The notes under the pieces: model-generated | Told to the model about the DNA's origin: nothing | Databases searched by the model: none | The model's input: the letters and a program-made list of their open reading frames with translations, nothing else | From: Promethearchaeota archaeon | Lineage (GTDB): Archaea > Asgardarchaeota > Lokiarchaeia > Sigyniarchaeales > SOKP01 | Assembly (NCBI GenBank): GCA_019057865.1 | Contig: JAHLWP010000006.1 | Location: forward strand, 1 to 64,000 | Length of the DNA: 64,000 bases | Direction: 5' to 3' | In this document: positions 2,155 to 63,336 of the stretch, piece after piece | Position numbering within the stretch: position 1 is the stretch's first letter | How the letters are laid out: each line of letters starts with the position of its first letter | Made by a program: the position numbers and the translations under genes

Positions 2155-3256
2155 ATGGCTTATAGCATTAAAGATGATGTTAATGAAATAATCAATCGTC
2201 TCGAAAAAGGAGATATCTCATTTAAAGAAAAAACAATCTTAGTTACTGGAGGGGCGGGATTTTTGGGCTCATGGGTGTGTGATGTTCTTGTTAAACAGGA
2301 TGCATATTGCATCTGTTTAGACAATTTATCATCAGGACAACCTGAAAACATATTGCACCTTATGGAAAAAGACAAATTTCGTTTTATTAACCACGATATT
2401 TCTTATCCAATATATTTTGGAATGAGTTATCATCCATTGGGCATTTGCATAGGGGATATTAAAAAAATAGATATCGTTATGCATATGGCAAGTCGAGCAT
2501 CTCCATTTGAATTTACAAAAGAACCAATATCAATATTAAGAAGCAATACTCTGGGAACTTTGAATACTTTAGGAATTGCGAAATTCCATAATGCCATGTT
2601 TTTTTATACAAGTACCTCTGAAGTCTATGGAAATCCACCAAAAGAAGCTGTTCCTACACCAGAAAGTTACTTTGGGCACGTAAATCTTGCTTAAGGTTTC
2701 CTACAAGAACGTATACCCAGTAGGTCCCAGAAGTTGCTATGATGAGTCTAAAAGAGCTGGAGAAGCATTTATTAAAGCTTATGAACTTCAACATCAAATG
2801 AGAACAAAAATCGTGAGAATTTTTAATACAGCAGGACCTAGAATACGATATGGACCTGAATTTGGAAGAGTTGTTCCCAACTTCATACACCAAGCCATAC
2901 ATGATGAAGATATTATTGTTTTTGGAGATGGGTCACAAACTAGATCTTTTATCTATGTAGTCGATGAGATTGAAGGGATACTTAAAATGGTACATAAAGA
3001 TGAAGCCATTGGAAATGTTATAAATTTAGGTAATAATAAGGAATATACAATTCTAGAATTAGCTAATATCATAAAAGATTTAACGAATTCTAACTCAAAA
3101 ATTATATTTAATCCATTACCTATTGATGATCCAGTCCGAAGGTGTCCTGATATACAAAAAGCAAAGGAAATTCTCAATTGGGAACCAACAACATCTTTAA
3201 GGGACGGTTTGAAAAAAACTATTGCTTGGTTTAAAGATAATGAGCGTAAAAGTTAA
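2155..3256 (+). CDS. UDP-glucuronate decarboxylase-like SDR epimerase, split by a BHB intron (exons 2155-2683 and 2715-3256)
   Basis: Extended short-chain dehydrogenase. Exon 1 carries the NAD-binding TGGAGFLGS (about residues 31-39) and the catalytic TSTSEVYG. Exon 2 carries the YDESK (Y-x-x-x-K) dyad, the RIFNTAGPR motif and the usual C-terminal substrate domain. The best family match is UDP-glucuronate decarboxylase/UDP-xylose synthase (MASRASP..., TSTSEVYG), so it probably makes a nucleotide sugar for glycans. Read straight through, the frame stops at 2692-2694 just after GHVN, and the family sequence resumes in another frame. Removing 31 nt (2684-2714) joins the exons as GHVNPVGPRSCYDESKR and gives 356 residues, a normal family length. 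Start ATG at 2155 follows AAAGGT at a good distance. A true frameshift is the alternative, but the exact motif repair and the BHB fold argue for an intron. The sugar specificity is inferred. Confidence 0.85.
2684..2714 (+). other. 31-nt bulge-helix-bulge (BHB) intron in a protein-coding gene
   Basis: The RNA folds as an archaeal splicing substrate. The central 4-bp helix is ACGU (2678-2681) with ACGU (2709-2712). The 5' bulge is AAA (2682-2684) and the 3' bulge AUA (2713-2715). The intron helix UCUUG (2685-2689) pairs with CAAGA (2704-2708). The exon helix UUGGG (2672-2676) pairs with CCCAG (2716-2720), leaving C2677 unpaired. Cutting after the second base of each bulge (2683/2684 and 2714/2715) removes 31 nt and joins AAC (Asn) across the junction. 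Seen: fold and reading-frame repair. Known: the archaeal tRNA endonuclease cuts such bulges, and a few archaeal mRNAs such as crenarchaeal cbf5 carry BHB introns. Inferred: splicing in vivo. Confidence 0.85.
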
Positions 3257-3764
3257 GAGTAATGAAAAAACAAATCTAAAGAACAGTAATAAACAGTTTG
3301 AGATTATCTTAAAAATCTGTTTAATTATCGGTATTATTATAATTTCAGGTTTTATATTCTATTACATTTCTACTCCTGAGCCCGGATATGTTACTTTTGG
3401 AATTTTAAATGAGAATCAAAAGGCTGAAGATTATCCTACCGAAGCGGCTGTTAATGAGAGTGTTTTTTTTTATGTCACTGTTGAAAATCATATGAAACGA
3501 GATTTTTCATTTCACTTAGAGATTTTTAAAGGTGATAATGAAACGATTTTAAATTCAACAGGATTATTTGGCGCTAAATCATATTTCAATACAACTACAG
3601 TACATTTAAACCATAAGGATTTTTGGATGTCTAATATTTTAAATGTTTCATTTTTACAACCTGGTGCAAATCAAAGAATTATAGTAATATTATGGGAAAT
3701 TCCTTATAGTGGAATAAGAAGATACGTTTCTTCGCTATACTTATGGTTAGAAATTTTGCCATGA
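3240..3764 (+). CDS. Membrane-anchored DUF1616-like domain protein
   Basis: About 174 residues. A basic N-terminus is followed by one hydrophobic segment (about residues 22-42) and then an outward beta-sandwich-like domain with YVTFGILNENQKAEDYPT, VNESVFFYVTVEN and LNVSFLQPGANQ. This resembles the extracellular C-terminal region of archaeal DUF1616 proteins, which are otherwise uncharacterised. The ATG at 3240 overlaps the end of the epimerase gene (stop at 3254-3256), which suggests co-transcription; a TTG at 3222 is possible but less likely. A truncated paralogue lies 770 nt downstream at 4530-4871. The link to the sugar epimerase hints at a cell-surface role, but this is only inference from context. 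Confidence 0.5.
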   Translation: MSVKVKSNEKTNLKNSNKQFEIILKICLIIGIIIISGFIFYYISTPEPGYVTFGILNENQKAEDYPTEAAVNESVFFYVTVENHMKRDFSFHLEIFKGDNETILNSTGLFGAKSYFNTTTVHLNHKDFWMSNILNVSFLQPGANQRIIVILWEIPYSGIRRYVSSLYLWLEILP

Positions 3765-3804
3765 AAAATTAAAATTTATAAAAAAAAGAAAGGGTTAATT
3801 AATT

Positions 3805-4305
3805 TTATTCATAAGAGAGAATACCCATGTTAACATATACTTGTCCATCATTCCACCATTCTTGATTAAAAAATGTTACTTTTTCAACAGTTTTGCCATC
3901 AGTTAAATCATATATCTTTAATACATATACTGGTCCAGTATCATATAATTTAAAAGTACTAGATCCACCTTCATAATATGATACCGTGATTTTCGTATAA
4001 CCTCCGCCATTAAAATAAATTTGTAATAAAAGCCAAGGATCAAGGTCATCTGGATTATTATCCGCAAAAGTAATATAAAAATTAAGCACATAAATAAATA
4101 AAAATAATTCAGTTCCCTTGATTTTATATGCATCATATTGTACATCGGGATAGTAGAAACTCTCAAGGTCTCCAGCTAAATGTATTCCTTTTACTTTCAC
4201 AACTGAAGTCGGGTAAAGATTAAATACACCAAGAGCATTAACAGTAGATAAAAGGAGCATTCCACTCAAAAATGTAACAATACCTAAAAAATATTTTTTC
4301 TTAAT
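3805..4305 (-). CDS. Small secreted protein of unknown function, probable AUU start
   Basis: The frame starting at TTG 4269 (154 residues) begins in the middle of a signal peptide. Extending in frame to ATT at 4303-4305 gives a textbook signal sequence: KKKYFLG, a hydrophobic core through MLLLSTV, then NA as a likely cleavage site. There is no ATG, GTG or TTG further upstream before a stop at 4312-4314. An AGGTAG Shine-Dalgarno-like sequence lies 6 nt before the ATT. The mature part is about 140 residues, beta-rich and aromatic-rich with no cysteines, and I recognise no family. It is predicted to be exported. It faces the DUF1616-like gene convergently. Confidence 0.5.
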   Translation of the reverse strand: MKKKYFLGIVTFLSGMLLLSTVNALGVFNLYPTSVVKVKGIHLAGDLESFYYPDVQYDAYKIKGTELFLFIYVLNFYITFADNNPDDLDPWLLLQIYFNGGGYTKITVSYYEGGSSTFKLYDTGPVYVLKIYDLTDGKTVEKVTFFNQEWWNDGQVYVNMGILSYE

Positions 4306-4311
4306 ATTAAA

Positions 4312-4317
4312 CTACCT
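4312..4317 (-). promoter_or_regulatory. Shine-Dalgarno-like AGGTAG before an AUU start
   Basis: AGGTAG on the minus strand, six bases before ATT at 4305-4303. Its TAG also closes the upstream frame. It supports the extended, signal-peptide-containing start of the secreted protein over TTG at 4269, which would delete the basic n-region of the signal. Confidence 0.4.
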
Positions 4318-4529
4318 TTTTTTATTAACTCTTTTTCTTAAAAAATGAATTACTATTGAACTTTTATAAAGATTTTTTTTTGTAAGATTTTTGAAAAAAA
4401 AAAAGAAGTCAACTTCATATTTAAACTTTTTTGTCCAAAAGTAACATTAAAATCTAATCAAAAAAGATGATATTTTGAAAGGTTTTTTGATCAATTATTT
4501 ATTAATCCCTCATTATTCCAAAATGTTAA

Positions 4530-4871
4530 ATTTTAGCCATTCTGAAGTTTTTTTCTGTTAATGAAACTATTACATTTTATTTAACTGTCGATAATTATTT
4601 AAATAAAGAATTTACATTTCGGATTAAAATAAAGAAAGGAGATTATAATACTGTACTCAGTTCAATTGGCTCAAATGGTACTCTTGACTCTATAATTGGC
4701 AATTTTACTTTAAAAAATAACGAGAATTGGATTTCTGAAAAATTAAATGTTTCTTTCTCAGAAGTAGGGGCAAATCAAATAATTATTACTGAATTATGGC
4801 AGATCACTAACGATGATGAAGAAAAATTTTATAATATCTTGTGGCTCAGATTGAATATTACACTAATTTAA
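4530..4871 (+). pseudogene. N-terminally truncated paralogue of the DUF1616-like protein
   Basis: An open frame of 113 codons with no ATG, GTG or TTG near its beginning. Its translation aligns throughout with the gene at 3240-3764: SVNETITFYLTVDN against AVNESVFFYVTVEN, KKGDYNTVL against FKGDNETIL, and LNVSFSEVGANQIII against LNVSFLQPGANQRII. The membrane anchor and first third of the domain are missing. The frame opens only after a TAA at 4527-4529. The stop TAA (4869-4871) overlaps the end of the convergent pmbA gene. It is most simply a decayed tandem duplicate. A missing one-base shift in the T-run near 4548-4554 does not recover the N-terminus. Confidence 0.7.
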
Positions 4872-14117: not shown

Positions 14118-14225
14118 ATGAAAGCAGCTTATATAGAAAAACATGGAAATTTAGATCAAATTCAAATTGGAGAACTCGAAAAGTTTTACTGGAGATTTGA
14201 TAAATTTTATTTTATTAATTGGTAA
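14118..14225 (+). pseudogene. N-terminal remnant of an MDR alcohol dehydrogenase/quinone reductase
   Basis: A 35-codon open frame starting MKAAYIEKHGNLDQIQIGEL, which is the hallmark N-terminus of medium-chain (zinc-type) alcohol dehydrogenases and quinone reductases. After about 20 residues the similarity ends and the frame stops at 14223-14225, inside the 3' end of the convergent hydrolase gene. The rest of the roughly 330-residue enzyme is missing, so this is a breakpoint scar from a deletion or rearrangement. Confidence 0.6.
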
Positions 14226-14874
14226 AATTTAAAAACTTTTTCAGAAATTTGGTCCTCATAACCCCAATAAAAATGGTCTGCTCCTGAAATAATTTCATAT
14301 TGCTTAGGTTTAATGTAATACTTATAATGGTCAAAAAAGTTATCAAATGAGGCAACATTATCTCTGTCTCCTTGAAGAAAAAATTTAGGTTTTTCTGATT
14401 GGGAGAGTTCCTTGTAATTAATTCCCATTGAATCCCAAGGAAAAGAAATAGCTATATAACCTATTACTTTATCTGAATGATTAACAGCAGAACAACCTAT
14501 TGCAGCTCCATAAGAATAACCACAAATAATGATTTTTTTTAAATATTTCTCATTTACTAAAAAATTGATACAAGCTTGGACATCACTTAATTCTCCTCTT
14601 CCATTAGAATGAGTACCAGTTGATCTTCCAACAGCTCGGAAATTAAACCTGATACACGAAATATCATTTTTGATGAAAATATTAAAAATTGCAGATACAA
14701 CATTATTATACATATTCCCCCCAAATATTCCCTTTTTAAGTTTTAAATCCTTAAAAATTGAGGATGTGGGTGGACTAATAAAACAGAATAAGACTCATCA
14801 GAAGTTGATTGGTAGTATTCAGCTTCAAGTTTTACATCCTTATTAGTAATAAAAAATTTTTCAGTTTTAACCAT
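14207..14874 (-). CDS. Alpha/beta hydrolase, split by a BHB intron (exons 14874-14759 and 14726-14207)
   Basis: After removal of a 32-nt intron this is a 211-residue alpha/beta hydrolase of the small dienelactone-hydrolase-like group. It has the oxyanion region HPHPQFGGNMYNNVV, the RFNFRAVGRSTG loop, the nucleophile elbow GYSYGAAIG and a late Asp (GDRD) and His (GADHFYW), completing the triad. Unspliced, the frame starting at ATG 14874 ends at a TAA right after HPHPQFLRI, and the remainder reads only from an internal ATG (14713) in a shifted frame. That downstream piece alone would lack the first strands. No Shine-Dalgarno is seen at 14874, so the mRNA may be leaderless. It lies 54 nt downstream of a LAGLIDADG gene on the same strand. 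Confidence 0.85.
14727..14758 (-). other. 32-nt bulge-helix-bulge (BHB) intron in a protein-coding gene
   Basis: In the minus-strand RNA the central 4-bp helix is UCCU (14764-14761) with GGGA (14732-14729). The 5' bulge is CAA and the 3' bulge AUA. The intron helix is a perfect 8 bp, UUUUUAAG with CUUAAAAA. The exon helix CCCACA with UUUGGG has one mismatch. Cutting after the second base of each bulge removes 32 nt and joins CA|A (Gln), restoring HPHPQFGGNMYNNVV. This is a full hBHBh' structure. Fold and frame repair are seen in the sequence; splicing itself is inferred. Confidence 0.88.
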
Positions 14875-14927
14875 AAATAGAATAAAGAACTGTATCTTTA
14901 TTAAAATTTCTTACTAAACCAATTACT

Positions 14928-16850
14928 TCATGATATGTAGCTTTGACTTAAGCCACTAATATAATTCCCTTCCTGGGTTATCAATTTTTTTGAAGTATAA
15001 GACATTTTTTCTATTTTAACTTTATTGATTAAATTGATTGTATTATGCCTAAATAAGGAGTATAATATATTTAAAGTAGGTGTTGTAATGCCATGCTTAA
15101 TGATGTCAGTTAAAATTCTTAATAAGTAATTCTCAGAAATATTCTTTCCTTGGTAAAGTAATTTATGAATTGGAGATTCAATTAATCCCTTTATGTATAA
15201 GCTATGAAAAGTGTAATTATATAATTCTTTCAATTCTATATTTACTTTTTTCAGCCAAGGGTTTAAATAAAGAATACTTTTTTTTCCTGGTGCTTTATCT
15301 TTTGGCATTGGAGTTTCAGGAACAAATTTTCTTAGTAACTCATAATTTCTTTTCCCCATTATATGTATAATATATCGATCATGCCATTTTGGATTTTTTT
15401 TACTTAATTCAATTTTTTCTAAGTTTGTTATAATTCCAAATCTTTTAAGTAGAAAATTTATACCAAAAACTAATCTCGGAGAGGAAGTATATAGTCTTAC
15501 TTTTATGTTTCTCATATTATTTGAATTCCTTATCTGTTCTTTTATTGTGGCATCACCTAGAATGAACCCTCTAAGAAATCCTTTGACACAATCTAATGGG
15601 GCATTATATATGAATGGAGGAATTTCCTTTTGATGTGCTAAAACAGGTTTCAATCCTATACCCTTTGTAAAAATACTCTTTACTAAAAGAGATTCATTTC
15701 TTAATTTGAAAGCATTTTTATAGTTTTCTCTTTTTTCTTGTTCCAATCGAAATTTAATTCCTAGGACTCTCTTTACTTTTTCGGATACTTTCATAATTAT
15801 ATTTTTATCTGTGCCACATGTAAGATTTATGATATTCATCGAACCCTCTGCGATATATTGACCTAAGATAAATCCAAGGTCAAAATCTTTTTTAATAAAA
15901 CGAGGAATATTAAATAAGTTGCTCTTTCCAAATGTTATGTATTCTTTTCCATTTATTTCATAAACAAATCCACAATCTTTCAAATCTAATGGATTATCAT
16001 TTACTAATACCTTAAGCTTTCTAGGCATTAAGATTCTATCTCCACTCTTTAATTTGAAAGCAGGAATTTTATAAATATTTAACTTATCATCTATACTGTA
16101 AATAGATTGATTTTGACTTAATAAAATATCATCAAATCTAGAAGATATTTTAATTATAGTGTTGCAAATTTTCTTACTAAAGCCTTCTACAGGCATTAAA
16201 CAAGAAATTCCATCAGATGACATGCTATAAGTACTAATATTATAATTATTCATTAATTCTTGACTTTCATATAACTTGTAAAGATTCAAGTCTTCAAGAT
16301 ATACTAAATAAAATTGATAAGGGTATTGATCATCTTGCTTTTGCTTTGGTATCATTGAATTTTTTAAAGATTTGATTGCTAATTTATTTTTAATTAATAG
16401 TCTTTCATATTGCTTAACTCCAAGATATGACCTTAATCTCTTCCTCATCAGACTTAGAGAAGGGACATTTTCTTCATCATAATATTTACTCATAAATCTA
16501 TGAGCTGTGATAAATGAGTGAAACTTTTTAACAAGCCAAATCCAATTTAAAATATCTTTTTTTGAAAATTTTTTATTGTTTTTTATCAAAGTTTTGATGT
16601 TTCCTTTATCAAACTCAATATTATCGTTATATTGATTAAAAGTATTAAGATCAACCTTTTTCGGTATAGTATTTACATTAATATCATCAAATTGATTTAG
16701 ATTTTCCTTGATTAATTTTACACCACAATTTATACAATAAAAAATTGGATCTTTATTTCCAGTAATTTCTTCGATCATTTTATTTGAAATGCTCCAACCA
16801 CATTCCAAACAATAATTTATTATTATATTTATAGAATTTTTTTCTAACAT
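14928..16850 (-). CDS. Free-standing LAGLIDADG endonuclease with zinc ribbon and Hint-like segment
   Basis: A 640-residue protein. The N-terminus has a zinc ribbon (CLECGW about 14-19, CINCG about 38-42), a type I associate with Asgard proteins. Around residues 240-285 a Hint/intein-like stretch ends in LKSGDRILMPRKL, similar to intein block B/N4 context. Two LAGLIDADG helices follow: LGFILGQYIAEGS (about 320) and VKGFLRGFILGDATI (about 418), each with the acidic catalytic residue. The end has no clear intein HN splice junction, so it is probably an intein-derived, stand-alone homing endonuclease. It directly precedes the intron-containing hydrolase on the same strand. The last codons overlap an unrelated open tail in another frame (to about 14877). 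Confidence 0.75.
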   Translation of the reverse strand: MLEKNSINIIINYCLECGWSISNKMIEEITGNKDPIFYCINCGVKLIKENLNQFDDINVNTIPKKVDLNTFNQYNDNIEFDKGNIKTLIKNNKKFSKKDILNWIWLVKKFHSFITAHRFMSKYYDEENVPSLSLMRKRLRSYLGVKQYERLLIKNKLAIKSLKNSMIPKQKQDDQYPYQFYLVYLEDLNLYKLYESQELMNNYNISTYSMSSDGISCLMPVEGFSKKICNTIIKISSRFDDILLSQNQSIYSIDDKLNIYKIPAFKLKSGDRILMPRKLKVLVNDNPLDLKDCGFVYEINGKEYITFGKSNLFNIPRFIKKDFDLGFILGQYIAEGSMNIINLTCGTDKNIIMKVSEKVKRVLGIKFRLEQEKRENYKNAFKLRNESLLVKSIFTKGIGLKPVLAHQKEIPPFIYNAPLDCVKGFLRGFILGDATIKEQIRNSNNMRNIKVRLYTSSPRLVFGINFLLKRFGIITNLEKIELSKKNPKWHDRYIIHIMGKRNYELLRKFVPETPMPKDKAPGKKSILYLNPWLKKVNIELKELYNYTFHSLYIKGLIESPIHKLLYQGKNISENYLLRILTDIIKHGITTPTLNILYSLFRHNTINLINKVKIEKMSYTSKKLITQEGNYISGLSQSYIS

Positions 16851-17056
16851 TGTATTTTCTATATTAATTTTCTTTATATCTCATCTTGTTTCATAAAAAT
16901 TACAATTTTTACAAGTTTTATTTTTAAACAGTGTTATCAAACACTATAAAATAAAATTCTTTATATTTAAATAAAAAAAGAGAACATTAAGATTAACATA
17001 ATTTTATTTAATTTTTTATCTATAATAATAATACTACTTATAATTCTGCGATAAAA

Positions 17057-21281: not shown

Positions 21282-22176
21282 GATGATTTACAACTTTATC
21301 ATGAATGATATTATTAGAAGCTATAACTGCTGGTTCACTCCACCTTAAAGCATCACCTTCAAACCAAATTGGTCTATTACTTGAATCAGTTACTTTTCCT
21401 CCTGCTTCTCTTACTATCAAATAACCTGGTAAAAAGTCCCATGTATAAGAATGTTCTAGATCAATTGGTTTAATATATAAATCAGCACTAGCATCAGCGA
21501 TTTTACAGAACTTCAGCATACTGTCTATTCTTATTAATTTATTGATTCCTACTTTTTTCGCAAATTCTAAAACCCATGGTTTGTTATAATGCAATGAAAG
21601 ACATAATACAGTATCTTTTAACGAATCTTGATTACTTACTGTTATTTTTTTAAAATCTTTTTCTCCATATGATGCATAAGCACCTTTACCTTTTACTGCA
21701 GAAAATATTGCCAATCCTTCATCATTATAATTTGGAACAGAAATAGCACACGTTTTAGGTTCAGATTCCACCATAAATCCAATTCCAATTGCATAAGAAA
21801 GACCCTCAATATATCCTTGAGTTCCATCTATAGGATCTATACACCATTCACTATTGGATTCTGGTCCTGAATAATTAACCATATCATGGAGGTTATTTAT
21901 GTCTATTTCTAAGTCTGAAAAGCATTTAGTTATGATATTCTCGGTTTTTGAATTAATAAATGAACCCTCTTCTTCAGCAATTATTTTATCTTCAGGAAAA
22001 AATTCTTTAATTTTTGAAATAATATAAATTTGAGTTGCTAAATCAGCAAGAGTCACAGGGGTTTCATCTTGTTTTTCGAAATAATCGAAACCTTTCTTCT
22101 TAAACCATTCAGGTATTTTACATGCTTTTTTAACTAGATCAATAGCTAATTCAGATTCTTTATTGTACATATTCAT
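21262..22176 (-). CDS. Inositol-phosphatase-family 3'(2'),5'-bisphosphate nucleotidase-like
   Basis: A 304-residue lithium-sensitive phosphatase-family protein. It has the metal motif DPIDGTQGYIEG (about 109-120), the ETPVTLADLAT opener, AEEEGS and the later SYTWDFLPGYLIVREAGG. Sequence layout is closest to Hal2-type PAP phosphatases rather than classical inositol monophosphatases. It would hydrolyse phosphoadenosine phosphate or an inositol phosphate. Convergent with dinB with a 20-nt overlap. Confidence 0.8.
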   Translation of the reverse strand: MNMYNKESELAIDLVKKACKIPEWFKKKGFDYFEKQDETPVTLADLATQIYIISKIKEFFPEDKIIAEEEGSFINSKTENIITKCFSDLEIDINNLHDMVNYSGPESNSEWCIDPIDGTQGYIEGLSYAIGIGFMVESEPKTCAISVPNYNDEGLAIFSAVKGKGAYASYGEKDFKKITVSNQDSLKDTVLCLSLHYNKPWVLEFAKKVGINKLIRIDSMLKFCKIADASADLYIKPIDLEHSYTWDFLPGYLIVREAGGKVTDSSNRPIWFEGDALRWSEPAVIASNNIIHDKVVNHLKKLQS

Positions 22177-22239
22177 ATTTCAAATAATGCAAAATTCTAA
22201 AAAATTATACTGATAATGATTATTAATTGTACTCAACTT

Positions 22240-23088
22240 TCAATCTTCTTTAATCAACTTAAATTTTTCAAAATTCATCGTTTCCAGATCTATGATTACA
22301 TAGATTAAGTGATTTTCATGTTGGTGTGATTGTCCAGGTTGAATACAAATAGTTTTTCCTATAGATGATTTCCACCTTCCTGAAACTTCTGGGCTTTCAT
22401 GAATATGACCATGAAAAGAAAGGAAGGGCTGATTTTTCTTTATAAACTCATAAACAGCAATAGATCCTACTTTTCGACCATCATGGCATACATCAAGTCC
22501 TATATTACTAGGTGGCATGTGAATTATATAAATAGTTTTTTTCATATTATCTGGTTTGATCAATTGATTCACTTCATCCTCAATTGTAGAAAGAGTTTTT
22601 ATGTATGACGACCAATCTTCAATTTTTTTCCACCCATTTGGATTAGAGATGTATTGCTTCCCAATTTGTTTTGGTAATTTAAAATCTCTGTTATCCATCC
22701 TTGCCCTATCTTTGAGTCCAAAAGGAAGATCAGTCACCCAGTTCATACCGATGAACTCATAATCATAATCTTCAATTTGGAATTTTTTTTGGGCGATATT
22801 GGTTATATAAGGATATTTTTCGCAAATATCTTCAAATAGAGTGTCAAATATTATGCAGTCATCATTGCCTAGTAAGCTAATAAAATATATTTTTAATAAT
22901 TCAAATCGAGAAAAGTATTCATCAAGAAAATCAATAATAAATTTATCTTGATGTAATAAATTACCTCTAAACGTAAGCATATCCCCCCCATTTATTACAA
23001 TATCTACCTTTAAAGACTTAGCTTCATGAAAAATCCTTTCATATTTCCATTTAATTCCATGTAAGTCTGTTACGTATAGTATCTTCAT
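22240..23088 (-). CDS. Calcineurin-like metallophosphoesterase
   Basis: A 282-residue phosphoesterase with the complete ligand set: VTDLHG (residues 6-11), NGGDML (about 34), LGNDDC (about 73), an IIHMPPS segment and a C-terminal FHGHIHESP. Similar archaeal proteins are uncharacterised metallophosphoesterases. The two-aspartate GNDD in place of GNHD is a common variant in this subgroup. It is 63 nt from the phosphatase gene on the same strand. Confidence 0.8.
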   Translation of the reverse strand: MKILYVTDLHGIKWKYERIFHEAKSLKVDIVINGGDMLTFRGNLLHQDKFIIDFLDEYFSRFELLKIYFISLLGNDDCIIFDTLFEDICEKYPYITNIAQKKFQIEDYDYEFIGMNWVTDLPFGLKDRARMDNRDFKLPKQIGKQYISNPNGWKKIEDWSSYIKTLSTIEDEVNQLIKPDNMKKTIYIIHMPPSNIGLDVCHDGRKVGSIAVYEFIKKNQPFLSFHGHIHESPEVSGRWKSSIGKTICIQPGQSHQHENHLIYVIIDLETMNFEKFKLIKED

Positions 23089-23227
23089 TTAAAAAACCTG
23101 ATTTTAGAAATGTTATATAATATGAAAGGTTCTCTCTATTTTTTAAGATCTAATAAATTAAAAGAATTAGCTTAGTAATTAATATAAATTTTTTCATTTA
23201 GTTGTTCAATAGAATTGCTTTATTAAA

Positions 23228-25312
23228 TTATATAATTAGAAGTTTTTTCATTTCATTTACATAATCAATCGTCAAGGAAAATGTATCAGCTAATATTTTA
23301 GCTTGGTCAGTTCTATTTTTTATATCGAATTCAATATTAAATTCTTTCAAAAGCCATAATAACTTATACATTTCAATTTTTTTCATAAAATCTTTGTCAA
23401 TTTTATAATATTGTGAGTAGCCTTCATAAAAAGCATTTTTAAAATTGTACTTCTCCAAGTTTTTTAATGTTAAATATTCTAGTTTAACAAAATCTTGTGC
23501 TCTGCAACCAATACACCAATCATCAAAATCTATTAATCCGCTTATTCGAAAATTGGCAGGTTCTTCTTTCACGATAATATTTTGACCTTTAAAATCATTA
23601 TGTAATAAAGTAAAATCAAACTCATCTTCAATTAACGCTTGATTGTCTCTGTAATAATCCTTAATTTCTTTTATGAAATTTAATTTATGCCTTTTAGCAT
23701 CTTGAATTTCAACTTCCAATTTTTTATTAAATATCTCTGAAAGTGAATCTTTTTTCTTACCAATATCTTTTACATTTTCATAATAAGAGTCAAAATTTAT
23801 TTTATGCAGTTTTCCTAAAATTATTCCTAAGTCCTTAAATAAATTTGGAAATTTTGTTTTCCTTAAAATAATTTCTTCACTTAAATATTGTCTTAAATAC
23901 CAAATTAATGGTTTTCCGTTAATATAATCTTGTACTGTGAAGACGTATGGAACAGTCTCTTTAGTTTCATCGTAATAAATCAAATTTCCTACAGGAACAG
24001 TAGGAGGATTATCTTTATGGAAAATATAAGCCCCTATTTTACTTGATACAATACTATTTACCTGACCTGTGAGATTGTCTGTATCTCCGCTTAAGGTTCC
24101 ATCTAAAAATGGATATAATAATTTTTCTTTAACGATATTTTCAAATGGAAAGTTTTCACAAGTTCGAAATCTAAAAATTAAATGACTATTTTCAAAATTT
24201 ACTCTATAAATTGTATTTATTGTGGCATCAAATGGACCTATTATTTTTTTTAACTTTCCTTGTTCAATTAGAACATCTACATTAGAGAATGTTTTAATAA
24301 TCTCCTTAAATTGATATAGATCTTTTTTCCCTAAGAAATATAACTGATAAATTTGTTTTTGGTTAATTAAGTAATTTATAGTGGCTTCTATTCTTCCTTT
24401 TGTTATCTCATCAATGTCTATTTGAAGGTCAGGAGAAATCAAATCAATCTCTTTTATAGGATTAGTTAATCTTTCTTTGTAGAGATGAAGAAAAGCATAT
24501 TTTAATCCACGTCTTTCTTTTCCTTCATTTATTTTAAAATCATAAATCTTATTTCTGATATCATTTATTTGATCTTGTAATTGATGAACTTCTAATATAT
24601 TATCTTCAAGAGCAAAATAGTATAATTTTGAGCTTAGATTTATTAAATTACCAATACTAGATACTATTCCACTAAATTCTCTTTTTCCTAATGAAATTAA
24701 TTGGAAAAAATTTTGAAAATTGGCCTCCATCCCACAATGAACTGAAAAATCATAATCTAGTAATTGAATATAGGATTTGCAATTTTTGATGTTATAAAAA
24801 GAATCATTTAATCCTCTTAGATTTGGGAAATCTTTTAAATTATGTAATATTTCAGGGTCAATCTCATTTCCAGCAAATTGATCGGGATTGTTGTGCAAAT
24901 AAATATGGTTTTTAAAATTGATTGACTCAAATATATCTTCAAAATATGATTTTAGACTCTGATCAGAAATTTTTTCAGAAAACGGTGGACTAATTAAAAA
25001 ATTGATATCATTAAATTTTTTTGCTAATTCTTCCATTTGATTTATTAAATCCTCGGTTTCATTGCTATAAACTCCAACTAGAATCGGATTTTTTCTTCCT
25101 GAGGCCTCAAGTGCTAAATTAATAAGCTTAATTTTCTGTTCTAATTTATCTGAAAAAATTATTCCCTCTCCCGTAGTTCCAAAAAGAATAAACGAATCAG
25201 CTCCATTTGTTAGTATGTGCCGAATTAAAAGAGAATTTAATTCTTCATTGATTTCAAAATTTTTATCATAGAATATTATTGTATCACAAATAGCACCACT
25301 AACAGTTTGCAT
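23228..25312 (-). CDS. Fusion of a DapA-like aldolase domain and an aminoglycoside-phosphotransferase-like kinase
   Basis: A single 694-residue protein. Residues 1 to about 300 are a DapA (dihydrodipicolinate synthase/NAL) TIM barrel with FGTTGEG (44-50), YLHNNP (138-143) and GLNDS at the position of the family's GIKDS. The Schiff-base lysine is replaced by Asn (about 169), so ordinary class I aldolase chemistry should be lost. Residues from about 330 are an APH/choline-kinase fold with catalytic LLHNDFKGQN (about 570-580) and metal-binding GLIDFDD. The kinase looks intact. The substrate is unknown. The fusion suggests the dead aldolase domain serves as a binding or regulatory module. The frame is continuous with no stop between domains. 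Confidence 0.75.
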   Translation of the reverse strand: MQTVSGAICDTIIFYDKNFEINEELNSLLIRHILTNGADSFILFGTTGEGIIFSDKLEQKIKLINLALEASGRKNPILVGVYSNETEDLINQMEELAKKFNDINFLISPPFSEKISDQSLKSYFEDIFESINFKNHIYLHNNPDQFAGNEIDPEILHNLKDFPNLRGLNDSFYNIKNCKSYIQLLDYDFSVHCGMEANFQNFFQLISLGKREFSGIVSSIGNLINLSSKLYYFALEDNILEVHQLQDQINDIRNKIYDFKINEGKERRGLKYAFLHLYKERLTNPIKEIDLISPDLQIDIDEITKGRIEATINYLINQKQIYQLYFLGKKDLYQFKEIIKTFSNVDVLIEQGKLKKIIGPFDATINTIYRVNFENSHLIFRFRTCENFPFENIVKEKLLYPFLDGTLSGDTDNLTGQVNSIVSSKIGAYIFHKDNPPTVPVGNLIYYDETKETVPYVFTVQDYINGKPLIWYLRQYLSEEIILRKTKFPNLFKDLGIILGKLHKINFDSYYENVKDIGKKKDSLSEIFNKKLEVEIQDAKRHKLNFIKEIKDYYRDNQALIEDEFDFTLLHNDFKGQNIIVKEEPANFRISGLIDFDDWCIGCRAQDFVKLEYLTLKNLEKYNFKNAFYEGYSQYYKIDKDFMKKIEMYKLLWLLKEFNIEFDIKNRTDQAKILADTFSLTIDYVNEMKKLLII

Positions 25313-37888: not shown

Positions 37889-38039
37889 AATGCGGTGGTG
37901 GGTTTATTGGGAAAAGTATACTTTGATTTTAATTAAGAATTGAACTTAATAAAAAGGAGATAAGAGCAAAAATTTTCTAATTTAAATTAAAGGATTAAAA
38001 ATAAAATAATAAATTAGTTGAGAATTTCTTAGATAAAAT

Positions 38040-38651
38040 TTATTGTTGCTTTTCTTCTTTTTCCAAAGCTCCCATCATTTTCAGAATTATATAATACCCA
38101 TTTTTCCAAAAGTAGATCATGAAAAGTACTATGCCTACAAGCAAGAAGAGTCCTATTCCTGATGCTAATATTATAGGACCTGCAGTATCTAGGATTTCTA
38201 AAAGAGATAATGTACCATCTTCAGATCCGGTTATAAAATCAACAACTATAGCAAAAATAATTCCTATTATAATACCTATTAAGCTAATTAATAGCCCTCC
38301 AGCAGCAATTTTCACACCAGTTCTATTCTTATACTTTTCCTCAAGTTCTCTAACCTTGTAGATGAAATTTATCAAAGAACGTGAAGTTTTCTTAAACAAT
38401 CCAAAAAAGAAAACTAATAGAAAAAATAAACCCGCCATAAGTCCCCCGATTATTGCTATTTGGAAACCTAAATTAAGATGTAAAAACTTCTCAAGTTTTC
38501 CTGTTGGACCTATAAAGATTTCTGTAAGTGTAAAAACAGCTCCTCCTATAGTAATTAAACTTGCTAGCACTATAATGATATAAAAAACTAATGCTACAAT
38601 TTTCTGCCTTTTATTATACTCAATAGGTCGAATTGGGACAGATCTTTCCAT
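38040..38651 (-). CDS. Multi-pass membrane protein of unknown function
   Basis: About 203 residues from ATG 38651 (MERSVPIRPIEYNKRQK), with four hydrophobic segments: IVALVFYIIIVLASLITIG, the FQIAIIGGLMAGLFFLLVFF region, IAAGGLLISLIGIIIGIIFA and the ASGIGLFLLVGIVLFMIYF region. There is a positively charged linker between the second and third. A frame-compatible TTG at 38750 would add 33 residues, but ATG looks more natural. I recognise no family. It stands alone between herA and glpK. Confidence 0.5.
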   Translation of the reverse strand: MERSVPIRPIEYNKRQKIVALVFYIIIVLASLITIGGAVFTLTEIFIGPTGKLEKFLHLNLGFQIAIIGGLMAGLFFLLVFFFGLFKKTSRSLINFIYKVRELEEKYKNRTGVKIAAGGLLISLIGIIIGIIFAIVVDFITGSEDGTLSLLEILDTAGPIILASGIGLFLLVGIVLFMIYFWKNGYYIILKMMGALEKEEKQQ

Positions 38652-38862
38652 TTTATTCACATTTAGTTCTTTTATTGATTTTTCAGTTTTAGAGATTATT
38701 CCTTCAGTTATAAGTAAAATTGAACATAAAAGAATTCTATGTCCAAACAATAACTTAACTATGCAATTATAATTAAAAAAACAATATCAATATACATATA
38801 TAAAATTGATTATTATCAATTCGATTATTTAATAATAAAAAATAATATAGCTATTTTGGACT

Positions 38863-40389
38863 CTAATTCTGATTTAAATTGCTAAAATTTTTATAGAAAT
38901 CATTACCCTCTAAATAATTATACAATTCATATGAAAGTTTATAGATTTTTTCATAAATTTCATGATTTTCATTATTAGGTATCCACTTCTTATCAACCTT
39001 ACATAAATTTTCTGCTGCTTTAGAGATATCAGGATATAATCCTGCTCCTGAAGCTGCTAATATAGCTGCACCCAATGATGTGGATTCTTCAATTATATTT
39101 CTTACACACGTAATACCTAAAACATCAGCATATATCTGATTCCAAAAATCTGAACGAGAACCGCCTCCAGTTAACATTAATTCTTTAGGGACAATTCCTA
39201 TTTCTTTGAAAACTTCGACATTTTTTCTTACTTCAAACGCCACGCCTTCAAGAACAGCTCGATAAAGATCTTTTCGTTCATGACCTAAAGACAGCCCAAA
39301 GAGTATTCCCTTTGCGAAAGGATTCCAATGGGGAGCTCCTGCCCCTACTAAGTGGGGAATCAATATTAATCCATTAGCGCCCATTGGAGACTGTTTTGCT
39401 TCAGATATCATATTTTCATATGGATCTTGACCTATCTCTTCTGCTACTAAGCATTCAGCTTTGCCCACTTGATCTCTGAACCATCTTAGTGTGGCTCCGG
39501 ATGTGAAAATGCTAGCTTCTTGCACCCAAGATCCTGGTACTGCATGACAGCTACATATTACTCTCTTCTCTGGATCGAATTTTGGTTTGTCTAAATAAGC
39601 TAAAATAAAACTTCCTGTTCCTGTTGTACATTTAATATCACCAAGAGAAACTACTCCTACTCCTAAAGCTGCAGATTGTTGATCTCCTGCACCTGTAACC
39701 ACTAAAGTTTTCTTATCGAATAATGTCTCATCTGTTACAATTTCTCCAATATCTATTCCACTTTCTATTGCTTCTGGCATTTTATCTAAATCTATTTCAA
39801 GCTCGGAAGCGATGTCTTCTGAATATCGAAGGTTATTGATATCAAATAACATTGTTCTAGAAGCATTTGAAAAATCGGTATAAAACTTACCTGTTAATTT
39901 GTGTATTATGAAATCTGATACCAATAAGAATTTATGAGTTTTTTGATAAATATCTGGTTTCTCATCCTTGAACCATAATATTTTAGTAGCAGAAAAATAT
40001 GGATCTATTGTCAATCCTGTAATCCCATAAATTTTATCTAATCCTAACTTAGATTTAATTGTTTCCACTTGATTTATAGTGCGTCGATCTTGCCAAACTA
40101 ATGCATTATGAAGAGGATTTCCCTCTTTATCAACAGGTACTATAGTTTCTCGTTGATTGGTAACAGATAGGCTTACAATATCTGTTTTATCAATCCCACT
40201 CTTTTTTATGGCATTATCAATAGTTTTTTTGATTGAATCCCACCACACTTTAGCGTCCTGTTCAACATAAGAAGGAGAAGGATAAAAGCTATTCCATTCT
40301 TGATAATCACTAGCAATTATTGTACCAGCTAAATCAAAAATATAGGTTCTACACCCTGTTGTCCCTAAATCCAATGCAGCGACAAACAT
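38863..40389 (-). CDS. glpK: Glycerol kinase (FGGY family)
   Basis: A 508-residue FGGY kinase. The phosphate-binding LDLGTTGCR is at residues 6-14, with VTNQRETIVPVDKEG and VWQDRRT typical of glycerol kinase rather than xylulokinase. GAGDQQSAALG, CTTGTGSFIL and LTGGGSRSDFWNQI complete the ATPase. It phosphorylates glycerol to glycerol-3-phosphate. There is no neighbouring glycerol dehydrogenase. The first 139 bp are nearly identical to a fragment at 41811-41949, on the far side of a nuclease remnant; see the repeat entry. Confidence 0.9.
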   Translation of the reverse strand: MFVAALDLGTTGCRTYIFDLAGTIIASDYQEWNSFYPSPSYVEQDAKVWWDSIKKTIDNAIKKSGIDKTDIVSLSVTNQRETIVPVDKEGNPLHNALVWQDRRTINQVETIKSKLGLDKIYGITGLTIDPYFSATKILWFKDEKPDIYQKTHKFLLVSDFIIHKLTGKFYTDFSNASRTMLFDINNLRYSEDIASELEIDLDKMPEAIESGIDIGEIVTDETLFDKKTLVVTGAGDQQSAALGVGVVSLGDIKCTTGTGSFILAYLDKPKFDPEKRVICSCHAVPGSWVQEASIFTSGATLRWFRDQVGKAECLVAEEIGQDPYENMISEAKQSPMGANGLILIPHLVGAGAPHWNPFAKGILFGLSLGHERKDLYRAVLEGVAFEVRKNVEVFKEIGIVPKELMLTGGGSRSDFWNQIYADVLGITCVRNIIEESTSLGAAILAASGAGLYPDISKAAENLCKVDKKWIPNNENHEIYEKIYKLSYELYNYLEGNDFYKNFSNLNQN

Positions 40390-40391: not shown

Positions 40392-40486
40392 TTATAACTC
40401 TTATGTCTTAAATTTCTAAAAATATATTTAATTATAAATAGAGTATTAATAAAAAAGTTATCCTTCAATAGATTGATAATTCTGGT

Positions 40487-40918
40487 TTAAAAATTAAAAA
40501 AAGAATTCACTTCATTTTTTATAAAATCTTTAATTCTATTCGGTCTGTTCATTTTCGGGCAGATCCAATATGGAAATTCAAAAAAGATAATTCCATTATG
40601 GTAGAGAAGATAGATTTTAAGAAGATCATTAATTATACCATTTAAAAACGAATCTAGTTCATTAATATTTTTATGAAAATAATTCGGAAAAATATAATGC
40701 TGAATTCCATTATATTCGAATGTTATCCATATGAAATTTTCGCTATGATAATTAAAGGGGGTATTAATTTCACGCTCAAGAAGAAAAATTTTATTATTTT
40801 TAATGGTAATTTTAATATAACCAATAGGGAACTGAATTTTTATTAGTTTTGAATCAATTTTCGTATAATCATCTTTAATTTTATCAACAATCTTCTGAAT
40901 TTGGAAAGCATCGAAAAG
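40487..40918 (-). pseudogene. 5'-truncated relative of the Vsr/homing-type nuclease
   Basis: An open frame of 143 codons without a start codon, opening after a TAA at 40919-40921. Its core FEYNGIQHYIFPNYF matches FEYNGIQHYEFPNYWF of the gene at 51-1928, and the tail has NGIIFFEFPYW where that gene has IYLIEIPYY. The zinc-ribbon repeats are absent. In place of RFDGY there is no clear match, and the QVKK-type segment has drifted, so it is probably inactive. It lies 97 nt upstream of glpK. Confidence 0.7.
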
Positions 40919-41144
40919 TTAAAATATGATGGATATCATTACTCTGATATATATTATAATACTAATCAAGTCGGGTGTTCCTCAAGTAAGAAATCAGTAT
41001 TATACACACATTCAGTGCAGTTATTATGGAGCTCACATACCTTTTGTTTTACGCTTTCCGCTAATTTGCTCCGAAAAATCTTACAGTGTTCCTTTAGAGT
41101 AACATTTTATATATATTTTTTAATCAGAAAAAACATGATTACAT

Positions 41145-41501
41145 ATGATAGGTTTTGTTATATCTCTTATTCTCGCCATATCTTCCTTGTTGTTGGGAAT
41201 ACCTTTGATATTCAGAAAAGTTAAACCTAATCATTTTTATGGTTTTCGTGTGTCAAAATTCATTTTTAAAAGTGATGATATATGGTATGAAGTAAATGCT
41301 AAAGGAGGGATGCATTTAATCATTATTGGAGGTGTTTTAATAGTTATAGCTTCATTAGCATTAGTATATATTAATGATAATATCTTGCAAGGCATTTTTT
41401 TATTCATCACTTTACTTATCGAGGCATTGGGACTTATTTTATCTTTAATCATAACATATAATCTAGCACATAGACTAGCAAAGGAAAAAGGATTAAAATA
41501 A
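41145..41501 (+). CDS. SdpI-family membrane protein
   Basis: A 118-residue protein with three hydrophobic segments and the SdpI/YhfL signature PNHFYGFRVSKF plus WYEVNAKGG between segments one and two. In bacteria SdpI gives immunity to a killing factor and signals through a regulator; in archaea family members are common and uncharacterised. A start at ATG 41145 places the first segment at residues 2-22. It lies inside the putative insertion next to the nuclease remnant. Confidence 0.7.
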   Translation: MIGFVISLILAISSLLLGIPLIFRKVKPNHFYGFRVSKFIFKSDDIWYEVNAKGGMHLIIIGGVLIVIASLALVYINDNILQGIFLFITLLIEALGLILSLIITYNLAHRLAKEKGLK

Positions 41502-41770
41502 ATATTTTCACTGCAATTTAAAAGCAGAAAAAGGATTCTTCTATAAGAAAAAGAGAAGCAACAACAGATTTTATTTAACTGACTTTGGGTGTAGGAAATT
41601 CTTTCAGATTTCTTTTCAAATTGAAAAAAAAATTGATCTTTCCATAGGATTATCAACTTCCTTTAACACATTTTTCAATTTATAGTAGTATAAGGTTTTA
41701 TTCACAAATTTATTGGACGAAGTACATCTCTTATTTATGCCTTTTCATGTAGACAATTTACTCCAAATAT
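41502..41770. other. Intergenic stretch, nothing recognised
   Basis: About 270 bases, AT-rich, with stops in all frames I checked by eye. I see no tRNA, repeat or coding remnant. It may be decayed sequence belonging to the insertion upstream of the glpK fragment. Confidence 0.4.
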
Positions 41771-41947
41771 TTAAATAAGTTTGGAGATATTATGAATTTG
41801 GGAAACTGTTGCATCTTGTTCAACATAGGAAGGAGAAGGATAAAAGCTATTCCATTCTTGATAATCACTAGCGATTATTGTACCAGCTAAATCAAAAATA
41901 TAGGTTCTACACCCTGTTGTCCCTAAATCCAATGCAGCGACAAACAT
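41771..41947 (-). pseudogene. Detached 5' fragment of glycerol kinase
   Basis: An ATG at 41947 opens a 58-codon frame whose first 45 or so codons repeat those of glpK (LDLGTTGCRTYIFDLAG, then YPSPSYVEQDA). It then diverges to TVSQIHNISKLI and stops at 41771-41773. It contains only the first beta strands of the kinase, so it cannot be active. Its nucleotide differences from glpK are synonymous. It is the displaced 5' end of the old gene, or a copy that came in with the insertion. Confidence 0.85.
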
Positions 41948-44537: not shown

Positions 44538-45692
44538 TTACTTTTGTTTTGATAAATACCTAATTTTTACAAGTAAATCCCGCAATTCCATTTTATCGTT
44601 TTCAGGTGTAAGGTATTTCTTTTTAACGCCTTCTGATAATGGAATAGTTTCAATTTTATTGCCTTGAAGTGAAACCATATTTCCAAATTTACTTTCTAAA
44701 ACAAGTTTCATAGCAGCTAAACCAAATCGTAGTCCTAAAATTCGATCAAATGAGTTTGGAGCTCCTGCGCGCATAGTATGACCAAGTACTACACTTCTAC
44801 ATTCAAATTCTACCCCATTTTTCTGGAACTCTTGCTTTAAGTCGTCTCTTAAGTTTAATTCATCAACAATTATTTGAGACATATTTAATTTTACAAGTAA
44901 TGGGTTTCCATAAGTATCTTTAGGTAATTTATCTATAGTTTCTTTGGAAATCGTTTTAAAATCTCTCTCTAATGACTTTAGACTCGGATATGCTCCTTCT
45001 GAAATTGCTATTATGTGATATTTATATCCCGCATTAGCTCTTTTTTTAAGAATTTCAACAATATCTTTCTCAAAATCAAATGGCGTTTCTGGGATTAAAA
45101 TGATATCAGCACCAGCAGAAATCCCACTATACATTGTAAGAAATCCAGCATCCCTCCCCATTATTTCAACAATAAATACTCTCTGATGAGAACATGCTGT
45201 AGTTGTGAGATTGTCCATAGCGTTAGAAGCTAATTGCGTCGAACTCCAAAATCCGAATGTATAATGAGTTCCCTGCAAGTCATTATCAATGGTTTTTGGC
45301 ACTCCTACTACTTTTGCATCAGCATAATTACACATAAGATCCGCAACTCCTAAGGTATCATCGCCACCTATTGCAATTAAAGCGTCTATTCCTAGTTCTT
45401 TAAATTTTTCTGCTAGTTCTTTAGCTCTTTTCTCTTTTGATTCGACTCCTTTAAATGGATTTGTCCTACTTGTGTATAGAATCGTTCCACCAACAGTATG
45501 TAAATCATCATGTTCAGCAATATCAAGTGGAATTGTTTGATTTTCCAAAAATCCTTTCCAACCTTTAAGGATTCCAATACATTCAATGCCAACATCGTAC
45601 GCTTTAAGCATGATTCCATAGAGGACAGAATTTAAACCAGGACAATCTCCTCCTCCAGTTAAAATTCCTACTTTTTTTATTTGATTTCCCAT
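44538..45692 (-). CDS. pfp: 6-phosphofructokinase, probably pyrophosphate-dependent
   Basis: A 384-residue PfkA-family enzyme with GILTGGGDCPGLNSV (residues 9-23), ALIAIGGDDTLGVADL, VPKTIDNDLQGT and VEIMGRDAGFLT. The GGDD in place of GGDG, plus the lysine in PKTIDND, are the residues used to distinguish PPi- from ATP-dependent enzymes, so pyrophosphate is the likely phosphate donor. It converts fructose-6-phosphate to the 1,6-bisphosphate, reversibly if PPi-dependent. It is a single gene with its own promoter region upstream. Confidence 0.88.
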   Translation of the reverse strand: MGNQIKKVGILTGGGDCPGLNSVLYGIMLKAYDVGIECIGILKGWKGFLENQTIPLDIAEHDDLHTVGGTILYTSRTNPFKGVESKEKRAKELAEKFKELGIDALIAIGGDDTLGVADLMCNYADAKVVGVPKTIDNDLQGTHYTFGFWSSTQLASNAMDNLTTTACSHQRVFIVEIMGRDAGFLTMYSGISAGADIILIPETPFDFEKDIVEILKKRANAGYKYHIIAISEGAYPSLKSLERDFKTISKETIDKLPKDTYGNPLLVKLNMSQIIVDELNLRDDLKQEFQKNGVEFECRSVVLGHTMRAGAPNSFDRILGLRFGLAAMKLVLESKFGNMVSLQGNKIETIPLSEGVKKKYLTPENDKMELRDLLVKIRYLSKQK

Positions 45693-45772
45693 TTCATTTC
45701 ACATGTTTAGTTGTGTTAGATTATAACAAATTAGTTTATAATAAAAAATTATGATAATTTTATATTTTATAT

Positions 45773-63232: not shown

Positions 63233-63336
63233 CGCTCAGGGTGGGATTCGAACCCACGAGTCCGTTCGGACACCGGTTTAGCAGACCGGCGCTAATGGCA
63301 CAATTATATTGTTCTACCAGGCTAAGCGACCTGAGC
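63233..63336 (-). tRNA. tRNA-Ser (anticodon GCU) with a D-loop intron
   Basis: Acceptor GCTCAGG with CCTGAGC, anticodon stem CCGGT/ACCGG with loop CTGCTAA (anticodon GCU), long variable arm GTCCGAACGGAC and T arm GTGGG/CCCAC around TTCGAAT. The raw gene is 104 nt because the D-loop is 31 nt instead of about 11. Removing a 20-nt BHB-like intron (63294-63313) leaves an 11-nt D-loop closed by GCT/AGC and a normal 84-nt tRNA-Ser. CCA is not encoded. Confidence 0.9.
63294..63313 (-). other. 20-nt noncanonical (D-loop) BHB-like tRNA intron
   Basis: Helix UGGU pairs with GCCA (4 bp, one G-U). Bulge AGA lies on the 5' side and UUA on the 3' side. The intron hairpin is ACAAU/AUUGU with loop AUA. Cutting after the second base of each bulge gives the 11-nt D-loop UAGCCUGGUAG. 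The exon-side helix is weak, so it is a relaxed bulge-helix-loop form. Noncanonical tRNA introns are known in some archaea; here the position is the D-loop. Confidence 0.8.

What the first reader, a model, noticed from the sequence alone, without database searches (positions are those of the whole stretch)
14727..14758. A second mRNA BHB intron, 32 nt, in an alpha/beta hydrolase gene
The insert falls inside the oxyanion motif HPHPQ|FGGNMYNNV. It has a full hBHBh' fold: UCCU/GGGA central helix, bulges CAA and AUA, an 8-bp intron helix and an exon helix of 5 of 6 pairs. The same cutting rule gives in-frame HPHPQFGGNMYNNVV and a 211-residue enzyme. Two independent genes obeying one rule in a 64-kb window make chance frameshifts an unlikely explanation.
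Basis: partly seen in the sequence, partly recalled or inferred. Interest (0 to 1): 0.95.

Follow-up and report, generated by a model that had tools for sequence, protein, structure and literature searches.

The report
Tiny spliced introns in Asgard mRNAs
A 32-letter insert interrupts an enzyme gene of a Lokiarchaeon, relatives in two other genera carry inserts at exactly the same spot, and it is predicted to be cut out of the messenger RNA by the tRNA-splicing machinery, which would make it one of the few introns known in protein genes of archaea.

Summary
Confirmed. The 32-nt insert (14727-14758, minus) breaks an alpha/beta hydrolase gene. It sits in a full bulge-helix-bulge (BHB) fold, and cutting between bulge nucleotides 2 and 3 restores a 211-residue frame. 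Comparison shows it is real: of 57 same-family genomes whose junction I read, 19 carry an insert at this exact site (30, 31, 32 or 33 nt; three genera) and 38 have none. All 19 fit the same cutting rule, with compensatory pair changes. A survey blind to BHB found two more inserted genes: phosphofructokinase (7 genomes) and TldD (2). Flanking synonymous codons differ between intron-bearing and intron-free alleles. The genome has two splicing-endonuclease genes and RtcB. A tRNA in the window fits the same rule. Splicing itself is untested: I had no RNA data, and BHB scanning alone is not specific. The papers whose passages I read name only cbf5 as an archaeal mRNA with such an intron.

The parts
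14759..14874 (-). exon 1 of the alpha/beta hydrolase gene (ATG at 14872-14874; ends within HPHPQ)
   Evidence: tblastn match of residues 1-41 at C75:14752-14874
14727..14758 (-). 32-nt predicted BHB intron
14207..14726 (-). exon 2 of the hydrolase gene (FGGNMYNNV... to stop)
   Evidence: Pfam Abhydrolase_11 and Abhydrolase_1 on the joined protein
14761..14764 (-). 5' strand of the central helix (UCCU)
14758..14760 (-). 5' bulge CAA; predicted cut CA|A between 14759 and 14758
   Evidence: rule as in PMC2738675
14750..14757 (-). 5' strand of the 8-bp intron helix
14733..14740 (-). 3' strand of the intron helix
14729..14732 (-). 3' strand of the central helix (GGGA)
14726..14728 (-). 3' bulge AUA; predicted cut AU|A between 14727 and 14726
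14765..14770 (-). exon helix, 5' exon side (CCCACA)
14720..14725 (-). exon helix, 3' exon side (UUUGGG), 5 of 6 pairs
2684..2714 (+). 31-nt predicted BHB intron, joins GHV|NPVGPRS
2715..3256 (+). exon 2 of the epimerase-like gene
63295..63312 (-). 18-nt predicted BHB intron in the D-loop of a tRNA gene (63233-63336), same cutting rule: in-window control

Best explanation
The 32-nt insert at 14727-14758 (minus strand) splits a conserved alpha/beta hydrolase gene of a Lokiarchaeon and is predicted to be a bulge-helix-bulge pre-mRNA intron, likely cut out by the cell's own tRNA-splicing endonuclease with the exons likely rejoined by RtcB. Predicted steps: the transcript folds so that exon codons around the site pair with each other and with the end of the insert. 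The splicing endonuclease, for which the genome has two genes (one looks catalytic, one probably structural), would cut each three-nucleotide bulge between its second and third base. RtcB would join ...CCUCA to AUUUGG..., giving an in-frame 211-residue hydrolase. Shown: the insert, the predicted fold's fit, the restored frame, inserts at the same site in 19 of 57 genomes, constraint on both exons, and the enzymes' genes. Inferred: cutting, ligation and translation of the spliced mRNA. It belongs to a set of at least four gene positions in this family with such inserts, whose presence varies between close relatives along with recombined alleles.
For: Fold and frame. Same-site inserts in 19 of 57 junctions read, in genera g1 (1 of 17), g2 (16 of 22) and g5 (2 of 5), lengths 33 (14), 31 (2), 30 (2) and 32 (1). 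All 19 fit the cutting rule at the best of 3-5 allowed junctions, 17 with 4 of 4 central pairs and 2 with 3 of 4. Pairing on 13 distinct rows is 91% against at most 73% when slid; 5 pairs with changes on both sides, 9 cells (1 of 500 shuffles reach the 9). Pro codon CCT next to the site 18 of 18 with intron against 13 of 34 without. Both exons dN/dS below 1 in all 10 hydrolase pairs that I chose. Endonuclease genes and RtcB. In-window tRNA insert with the same rule. Two further genes found by a BHB-blind survey.
Against: No RNA or protein data. De novo BHB scanning is unspecific (36 frame-rejoining motifs against 179 for a decoy pairing rule, and the hydrolase itself was not among its hits). 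Fit is weaker in some copies: hydrolase of G030 and G062 3 of 4 central pairs; PFK of G070, G071 and G073 2 of 4, the other four 3 of 4, and five of the epimerase copies 3 of 4; TldD 86 of 5000 and G025 epimerase 1232 of 5000 shuffles. The MFE fold of the window's epimerase site is not the BHB, which is within about 0.8 kcal/mol of it; the MFE folds at the TldD site are not BHB either. On covariation, the number of pairs with double changes alone is not unusual (80 of 500 shuffles).
Confidence: 0.92

Rival explanations
1. The insert stays in the mRNA and ribosomes hop over it (translational bypassing, as recalled for T4 gene 60 and yeast mitochondrial byp elements), the hairpin helping the hop.
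For: Short hairpin inserts of 30-33 nt inside coding frames, some with in-frame stops.
Against: No matched take-off and landing codons: CAA against ATA in the window, GGA against GAA in PFK of G005, GGA against AGA in TldD of G022 (read from the sequences; that bypassing wants such a match is recalled). The exon sides pair with each other and with the insert in BHB geometry in all 19 hydrolase copies; bypassing does not need that. The genome has genes for the splicing enzymes.
Confidence: 0.04
2. Pseudogene, sequencing error or assembly artefact: the gene is broken and nothing removes the insert.
For: The window's genome has 5.15% estimated contamination, and the named relatives are metagenome assemblies. 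The window and its closest relative G005 are mosaics with breakpoints near the introns, so strain-chimaeric assembly is possible.
Against: Inserts at the same site in 19 separate genome assemblies, 11 for the epimerase and 7 for PFK. Both exons have dN/dS below 1 in the 9 hydrolase pairs and 5 epimerase pairs where both members carry the insert. Insert sequences are better conserved than fourfold sites.
Confidence: 0.02
3. Mobile self-splicing or protein-level element (group I or II intron, or intein).
For: A LAGLIDADG_3 protein gene lies just upstream.
Against: The only Rfam matches in the window at gathering score are two tRNAs. 30-33 nt is too short for a ribozyme (recalled). Inserts of 31 and 32 nt shift the frame and others carry stops, so no intein. 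The LAGLIDADG gene is not beside the hydrolase in the relatives' loci that I held.
Confidence: 0.01
4. BHB site used for regulation: the endonuclease cuts the mRNA there but the pieces are not rejoined into hydrolase mRNA (a cleavage switch).
For: A BHB in the 5' UTR of a Haloferax mRNA is cleaved by the endonuclease (HVO_1309; passages read).
Against: The cuts restore the conserved frame in all 19 copies, and exon 1 has dN/dS below 1 in the pairs tested, which a mere cleavage switch would not need.
Confidence: 0.03

Closest known systems
cbf5 pre-mRNA intron of Crenarchaeota (PMC2738675; abstract and part 1 of Results and discussion read)
   Same: BHB at the exon-intron borders, often unconventional, predicted cut between residues 2 and 3 of the bulges, in-frame joining, patchy presence with lineage-specific loss
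   Different: one gene for an RNA pseudouridine synthase in Desulfurococcales and Sulfolobales, with cDNA for several species; here four other genes in Lokiarchaeota, 30-33 nt, no cDNA
Archaeal tRNA BHB introns, including the many in Atabeyarchaeia and Freyarchaeia (PMC11291895; passages read)
   Same: same fold and rule; one such insert is in a tRNA gene of the window
   Different: the host transcript is an mRNA, so the reading frame and codons constrain the exon helix
HVO_1309 5' UTR of Haloferax volcanii (PMC7714728; passages read)
   Same: a BHB in an mRNA cleaved by the splicing endonuclease
   Different: outside the coding frame
Translational bypass elements (recalled)
   Same: short structured inserts in coding genes
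   Different: no matched take-off and landing codons in the three cases looked at; exon-intron pairing follows the BHB plan

Membership tests
Archaeal BHB pre-mRNA intron | BHB (4-bp helix between two 3-nt bulges) at the exon-intron borders | tested here: met
   4 of 4 central pairs in the window and 16 other hydrolase copies, 3 of 4 in two
Archaeal BHB pre-mRNA intron | cutting between bulge residues 2 and 3 restores a conserved protein frame | tested here: met
Archaeal BHB pre-mRNA intron | fit better than chance for the same insert composition | tested here: met
   8 of 5000 shuffles for the window hydrolase; six cases tested in all: 8, 9, 2, 7, 86 and, for G025 epimerase, 1232 of 5000, which does not pass
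Archaeal BHB pre-mRNA intron | intron-free homologues with precise absence at the same site | tested here: met
   38 of 57 junctions
Archaeal BHB pre-mRNA intron | hetero-oligomeric splicing endonuclease able to take unconventional motifs, and an RNA ligase | tested here: inconclusive
   two PF01974 genes, one matching best the 3p1z/3ajv chains and one with another residue at the aligned His; RtcB gene present. Assembly and specificity untested.
Archaeal BHB pre-mRNA intron | spliced transcript (cDNA or RNA-seq junction) | not testable with these tools
   no RNA data at hand
cbf5 intron | lies in cbf5 | tested here: not met
   host gene is an alpha/beta hydrolase (Pfam)
Group I or group II intron | catalytic core | tested here: not met
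   only two tRNA matches in Rfam over the whole window at gathering score; 32 nt long
Intein | in-frame open insert with splicing domain | tested here: not met
   32 nt, frame-shifting, stop inside
Translational bypass element | matched take-off and landing codons (recalled) | tested here: not met
   read by eye in three cases (sequences)

The most novel reading that the evidence does not exclude
Lokiarchaeota carry a population of mobile mini-introns in messenger RNAs: 30-33-nt BHB introns that copy into intron-free alleles together with short flanking exon stretches that already hold the pairing codons. Intron content would then be a fast-changing, lineage-crossing trait, and mRNA splicing a routine part of gene expression in archaea of the group from which eukaryotes are thought to come.
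Probability: 0.25. Interest if true: 0.96.

Novelty: new member of a known kind. Interest (0 to 1): 0.9.

Why it matters
In the passages I read, a 2020 paper still names the cbf5 mRNA as the only further archaeal BHB intron reported (PMC7714728). A set of such introns in several genes of Asgard archaea would show that splicing of coding mRNAs by the tRNA-splicing system is not a crenarchaeal curiosity. It would give a natural system to study intron gain, loss and spread, and it would mean that gene callers cut such genes in two. It makes testable whether mRNA splicing is in use in archaea related to the ancestor of eukaryotes, by a route that needs no spliceosome.

Tried and rejected
De novo BHB scan with frame rejoining over 603 kb (G000, G030, G005): not specific, decoy pairing gave more hits; so I turned to homology. 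The best-scoring BHB-like hairpin of the window (40949-41005, minus) lies in a stretch with no match across it in relatives; dropped. The LAGLIDADG gene upstream as a homing partner: not beside the hydrolase in the relatives' loci that I held, related proteins elsewhere in 8 other genomes; dropped. The in-frame TGA flagged in several epimerase hits is the normal C-terminal stop in the ones that I translated. A recent transfer of the PFK intron between genera (30 of 30 identical in G005 and G033/G019, fourfold sites 42-48% identical) is not proven: the gene tree does not reject the three as one clade (p-AU 0.407). The remaining insertion calls of the surveys (about 25 clusters; one in G007 and one in G009) look like chance alignments or wrong-strand echoes; judged by eye only. 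An RNA covariance model was not built: I expected it to find only the hydrolase intron again. No structure was predicted.

Full report
WHAT IS THERE. The window is bases 1-64000 of contig C75 of a 4.26-Mb archaeal genome, 28.7% GC. The nine named records with the best hydrolase matches are Candidatus Lokiarchaeota or Lokiarchaeia assemblies. On the minus strand, exon 1 of an alpha/beta hydrolase (ATG at 14872-14874) runs to 14759, a 32-nt insert follows (14758-14727), and exon 2 runs from 14726 to the stop at 14207. The insert brings a frame change and a stop. Without it the frame is 211 residues through HPHPQFGGNMYNNVV. Pfam sees Abhydrolase_11 and Abhydrolase_1 in the joined protein.

THE FOLD. 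The MFE fold of 61-101 nt around the site is the claimed BHB. At the allowed junctions the best one has central helix UCCU/GGGA, bulges CA|A and AU|A, an 8-bp intron helix and 5 of 6 exon pairs. Shuffling the insert (dinucleotides kept) and taking the best allowed junction each time, 8 of 5000 reach the observed score. In a scan of the window with fixed BHB geometry it ranks second of 636 candidates (302 plus, 334 minus) and first among those that rejoin frames. Against this stands: with a looser geometry and a coding filter over G000, G030 and G005 stretches, real pairing gave 36 rejoining motifs and a decoy pairing rule 179, and the hydrolase was not among the real hits (its short exon 1 probably missed the coding filter). 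The decoy favours purine runs, so it is not a fair null, but the lesson is that a BHB alone proves little in this DNA.

SAME-SITE INSERTS IN RELATIVES. Of 65 genomes of the family, 58 have the hydrolase at E up to 1e-15. I had loci for 57 of them (G001, cut by its contig end, was not fetched). Junctions read: 19 with an insert at exactly HPHPQ|(F/Y)GG, 38 without. The 38 are 33, four with HPHS shown there as protein, and G061, read. Lengths: 33 nt in 14, 31 in 2, 30 in 2, and 32 in the window. By genus: g1 1 of 17, g2 16 of 22, g5 2 of 5, others 0 of 13 (my tally). All 19 have a rule-conforming BHB at the best of 3-5 allowed junctions, 17 with 4 of 4 central pairs and G030 and G062 with 3 of 4. 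On 13 distinct rows of the window-like and g2 introns, 91.0% of cells pair, against 30-73% when slid. Five pairs show changes on both sides (9 cells, reached by 1 of 500 shuffles), among them A-U to G-C in the exon helix and U-A to C-G in the intron helix; the count of such pairs alone is not unusual (80 of 500). With G030 and G062 added, 85.9%. A quick protein tree of 52 rows (18 with intron; five of the 57 not read by that script) needs at least 5 changes of state, against about 15 when shuffled.

THE OTHER GENES. The same gene is split at the same place, by 31 nt each time, in 11 genomes of g1, g2, g5 and g8, out of 62 with a match, one of them (G079) uninformative. A survey by tblastn that does not look at folds compared stretches of 13 genomes (repeated with more sequence and stricter limits; a smaller first run was). 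Apart from calls that I judged by eye as chance, the frame-breaking or stop-bearing inserts inside well-aligned genes were all 30-32 nt: the epimerase-like gene, the hydrolase (G030; the window's own copy only), a phosphofructokinase insert (IGG|DDT) in G005, and a TldD insert (LTG|TFIHE) in G022. Pfam names the window's homologues PFK and PmbA/TldD. Across the family the PFK insert is in 7 genomes of 56 with a match, three of which cover only the C-terminus, and the TldD insert in 2 of 62; there I examined only hits flagged with stops. Both fit the cutting rule at an allowed junction: PFK with 7-10 bp intron helices but 2 or 3 of 4 central pairs, TldD with 4 of 4 central pairs but a 2-bp intron helix. 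Shuffle tests: PFK G005 7, TldD G022 86, hydrolase G030 9, epimerase G000 2, epimerase G025 1232, each of 5000; the last does not pass, its fold being a relaxed form with a bulged U.

SELECTION. Both exons have dN/dS below 1 in 10 of 10 hydrolase pairs (9 with both members intron-bearing) and 6 of 6 epimerase pairs (5 with both), pairs chosen by me. Exon 1 would be free to decay if only the downstream frame were used. Flanking synonymous codons go with the intron: Pro codon CCT 18 of 18 with intron against 13 of 34 without; epimerase His codon CAC 10 of 11 against 0 of 23 intron-free sequences with His (38 of 41 epimerase loci read). These sequences are related, so the counts are not independent. 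Insert sequences are much more alike than fourfold sites between the same genomes (median excess 0.34, 0.36 and 0.41 for 153, 55 and 21 pairs), which fits constraint, transfer, or both.

THE MACHINERY. The genome has two PF01974 splicing-endonuclease genes. One matches best the PDB chains 3p1z and 3ajv and keeps the H of EHSPF; the other aligns to 1a79 with another residue at that place, so it is probably the structural partner (that this His is catalytic, and the source organism of 3p1z, are recalled). RtcB is on the same contig, outside the window. A tRNA gene of the window (63233-63336, minus) has an 18-nt insert in its D-loop that obeys the same rule.

HOW THE INTRONS COME AND GO. The closest relative, G005, lacks both window introns but has the PFK one. 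Where the two align, most 500-nt windows are 90-99% alike, with patches of sharply higher divergence and some stretches that do not align at all (1-2212, 3681-4554, 14727-16993 and 40392-41804 of the window). The three known differences in intron content lie in such places: epimerase exon 1 and the intron's surroundings (dense differences end 22 nt past the intron), hydrolase exon 1 and upstream (differences end 18 nt past the intron, then become sparse), and the PFK gene. Other patches, at 21.5-24 and 38-39 kb, have no intron difference that I know of. So intron presence appears to change with recombined alleles; whether the introns drive this or ride along is open. G005 still has the CCC and GGGGGG codons of the exon helix at the hydrolase site.

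HOW COMMON. In the last survey G000 had 196 kb covered by cross-genome matches (54.6 kb in the window); no further insert turned up in its other 141 kb, nor, apart from the two calls set aside, in 174 kb of G016, 123 kb of G009 or 101 kb of G007. That run and one search also missed the window's own hydrolase, so short exons escape such surveys. The four genes all lie in the region homologous to the window, where most comparisons were made, so no genome-wide rate can be given.

LITERATURE. cbf5 in Crenarchaeota: PMC2738675 (abstract and the first part of its results). [quoted passage not shown] Abundant tRNA introns in other Asgard archaea: PMC11291895 (passages). In the rows that my searches for introns in Asgard or Lokiarchaea showed (general ones; several lists were cut) I saw no report of mRNA introns there; the library holds open-licence papers only and no preprints. 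Further papers opened for passages: PMC12397907, PMC13149111, PMC6125680.

VERDICT. A real, evolutionarily maintained BHB-type insert in a coding gene, one of at least four such positions in this family; removal from RNA is predicted, not shown.

Noticed in passing
window 14928-16850 (-): A 640-residue protein with a LAGLIDADG_3 domain lies just upstream of the hydrolase; related proteins occur in 9 of 65 genomes (own included) but not beside the hydrolase in the loci held.
   Followed up: partly
window 63233-63336 (-): tRNA gene with an 18-nt D-loop insert fitting the BHB rule; ARAGORN did not report the gene, Rfam did.
   Followed up: yes
window 40949-41005 (-): The strongest BHB-like hairpin of the window (13-bp helix, 57-nt candidate) in a non-conserved stretch between genes.
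   Followed up: partly
window 2200-2750, 14726-16990, 44560-46400, 21500-24000, 38000-39000 against G005:C62: Mosaic of sharply diverged or unalignable patches in DNA that is otherwise mostly 90-99% identical; three of them coincide with differences in intron content.
   Followed up: partly
L001 (G005) hydrolase junction: Intron-free, but keeps the CCC and GGGGGG codons that form the exon helix in the window: possible trace of a lost intron.
   Followed up: no
L221 (G005), L219 (G033), L222 (G019): PFK introns identical at 30 of 30 bases between two genera whose fourfold sites in the same gene are only 42-48% identical.
   Followed up: partly
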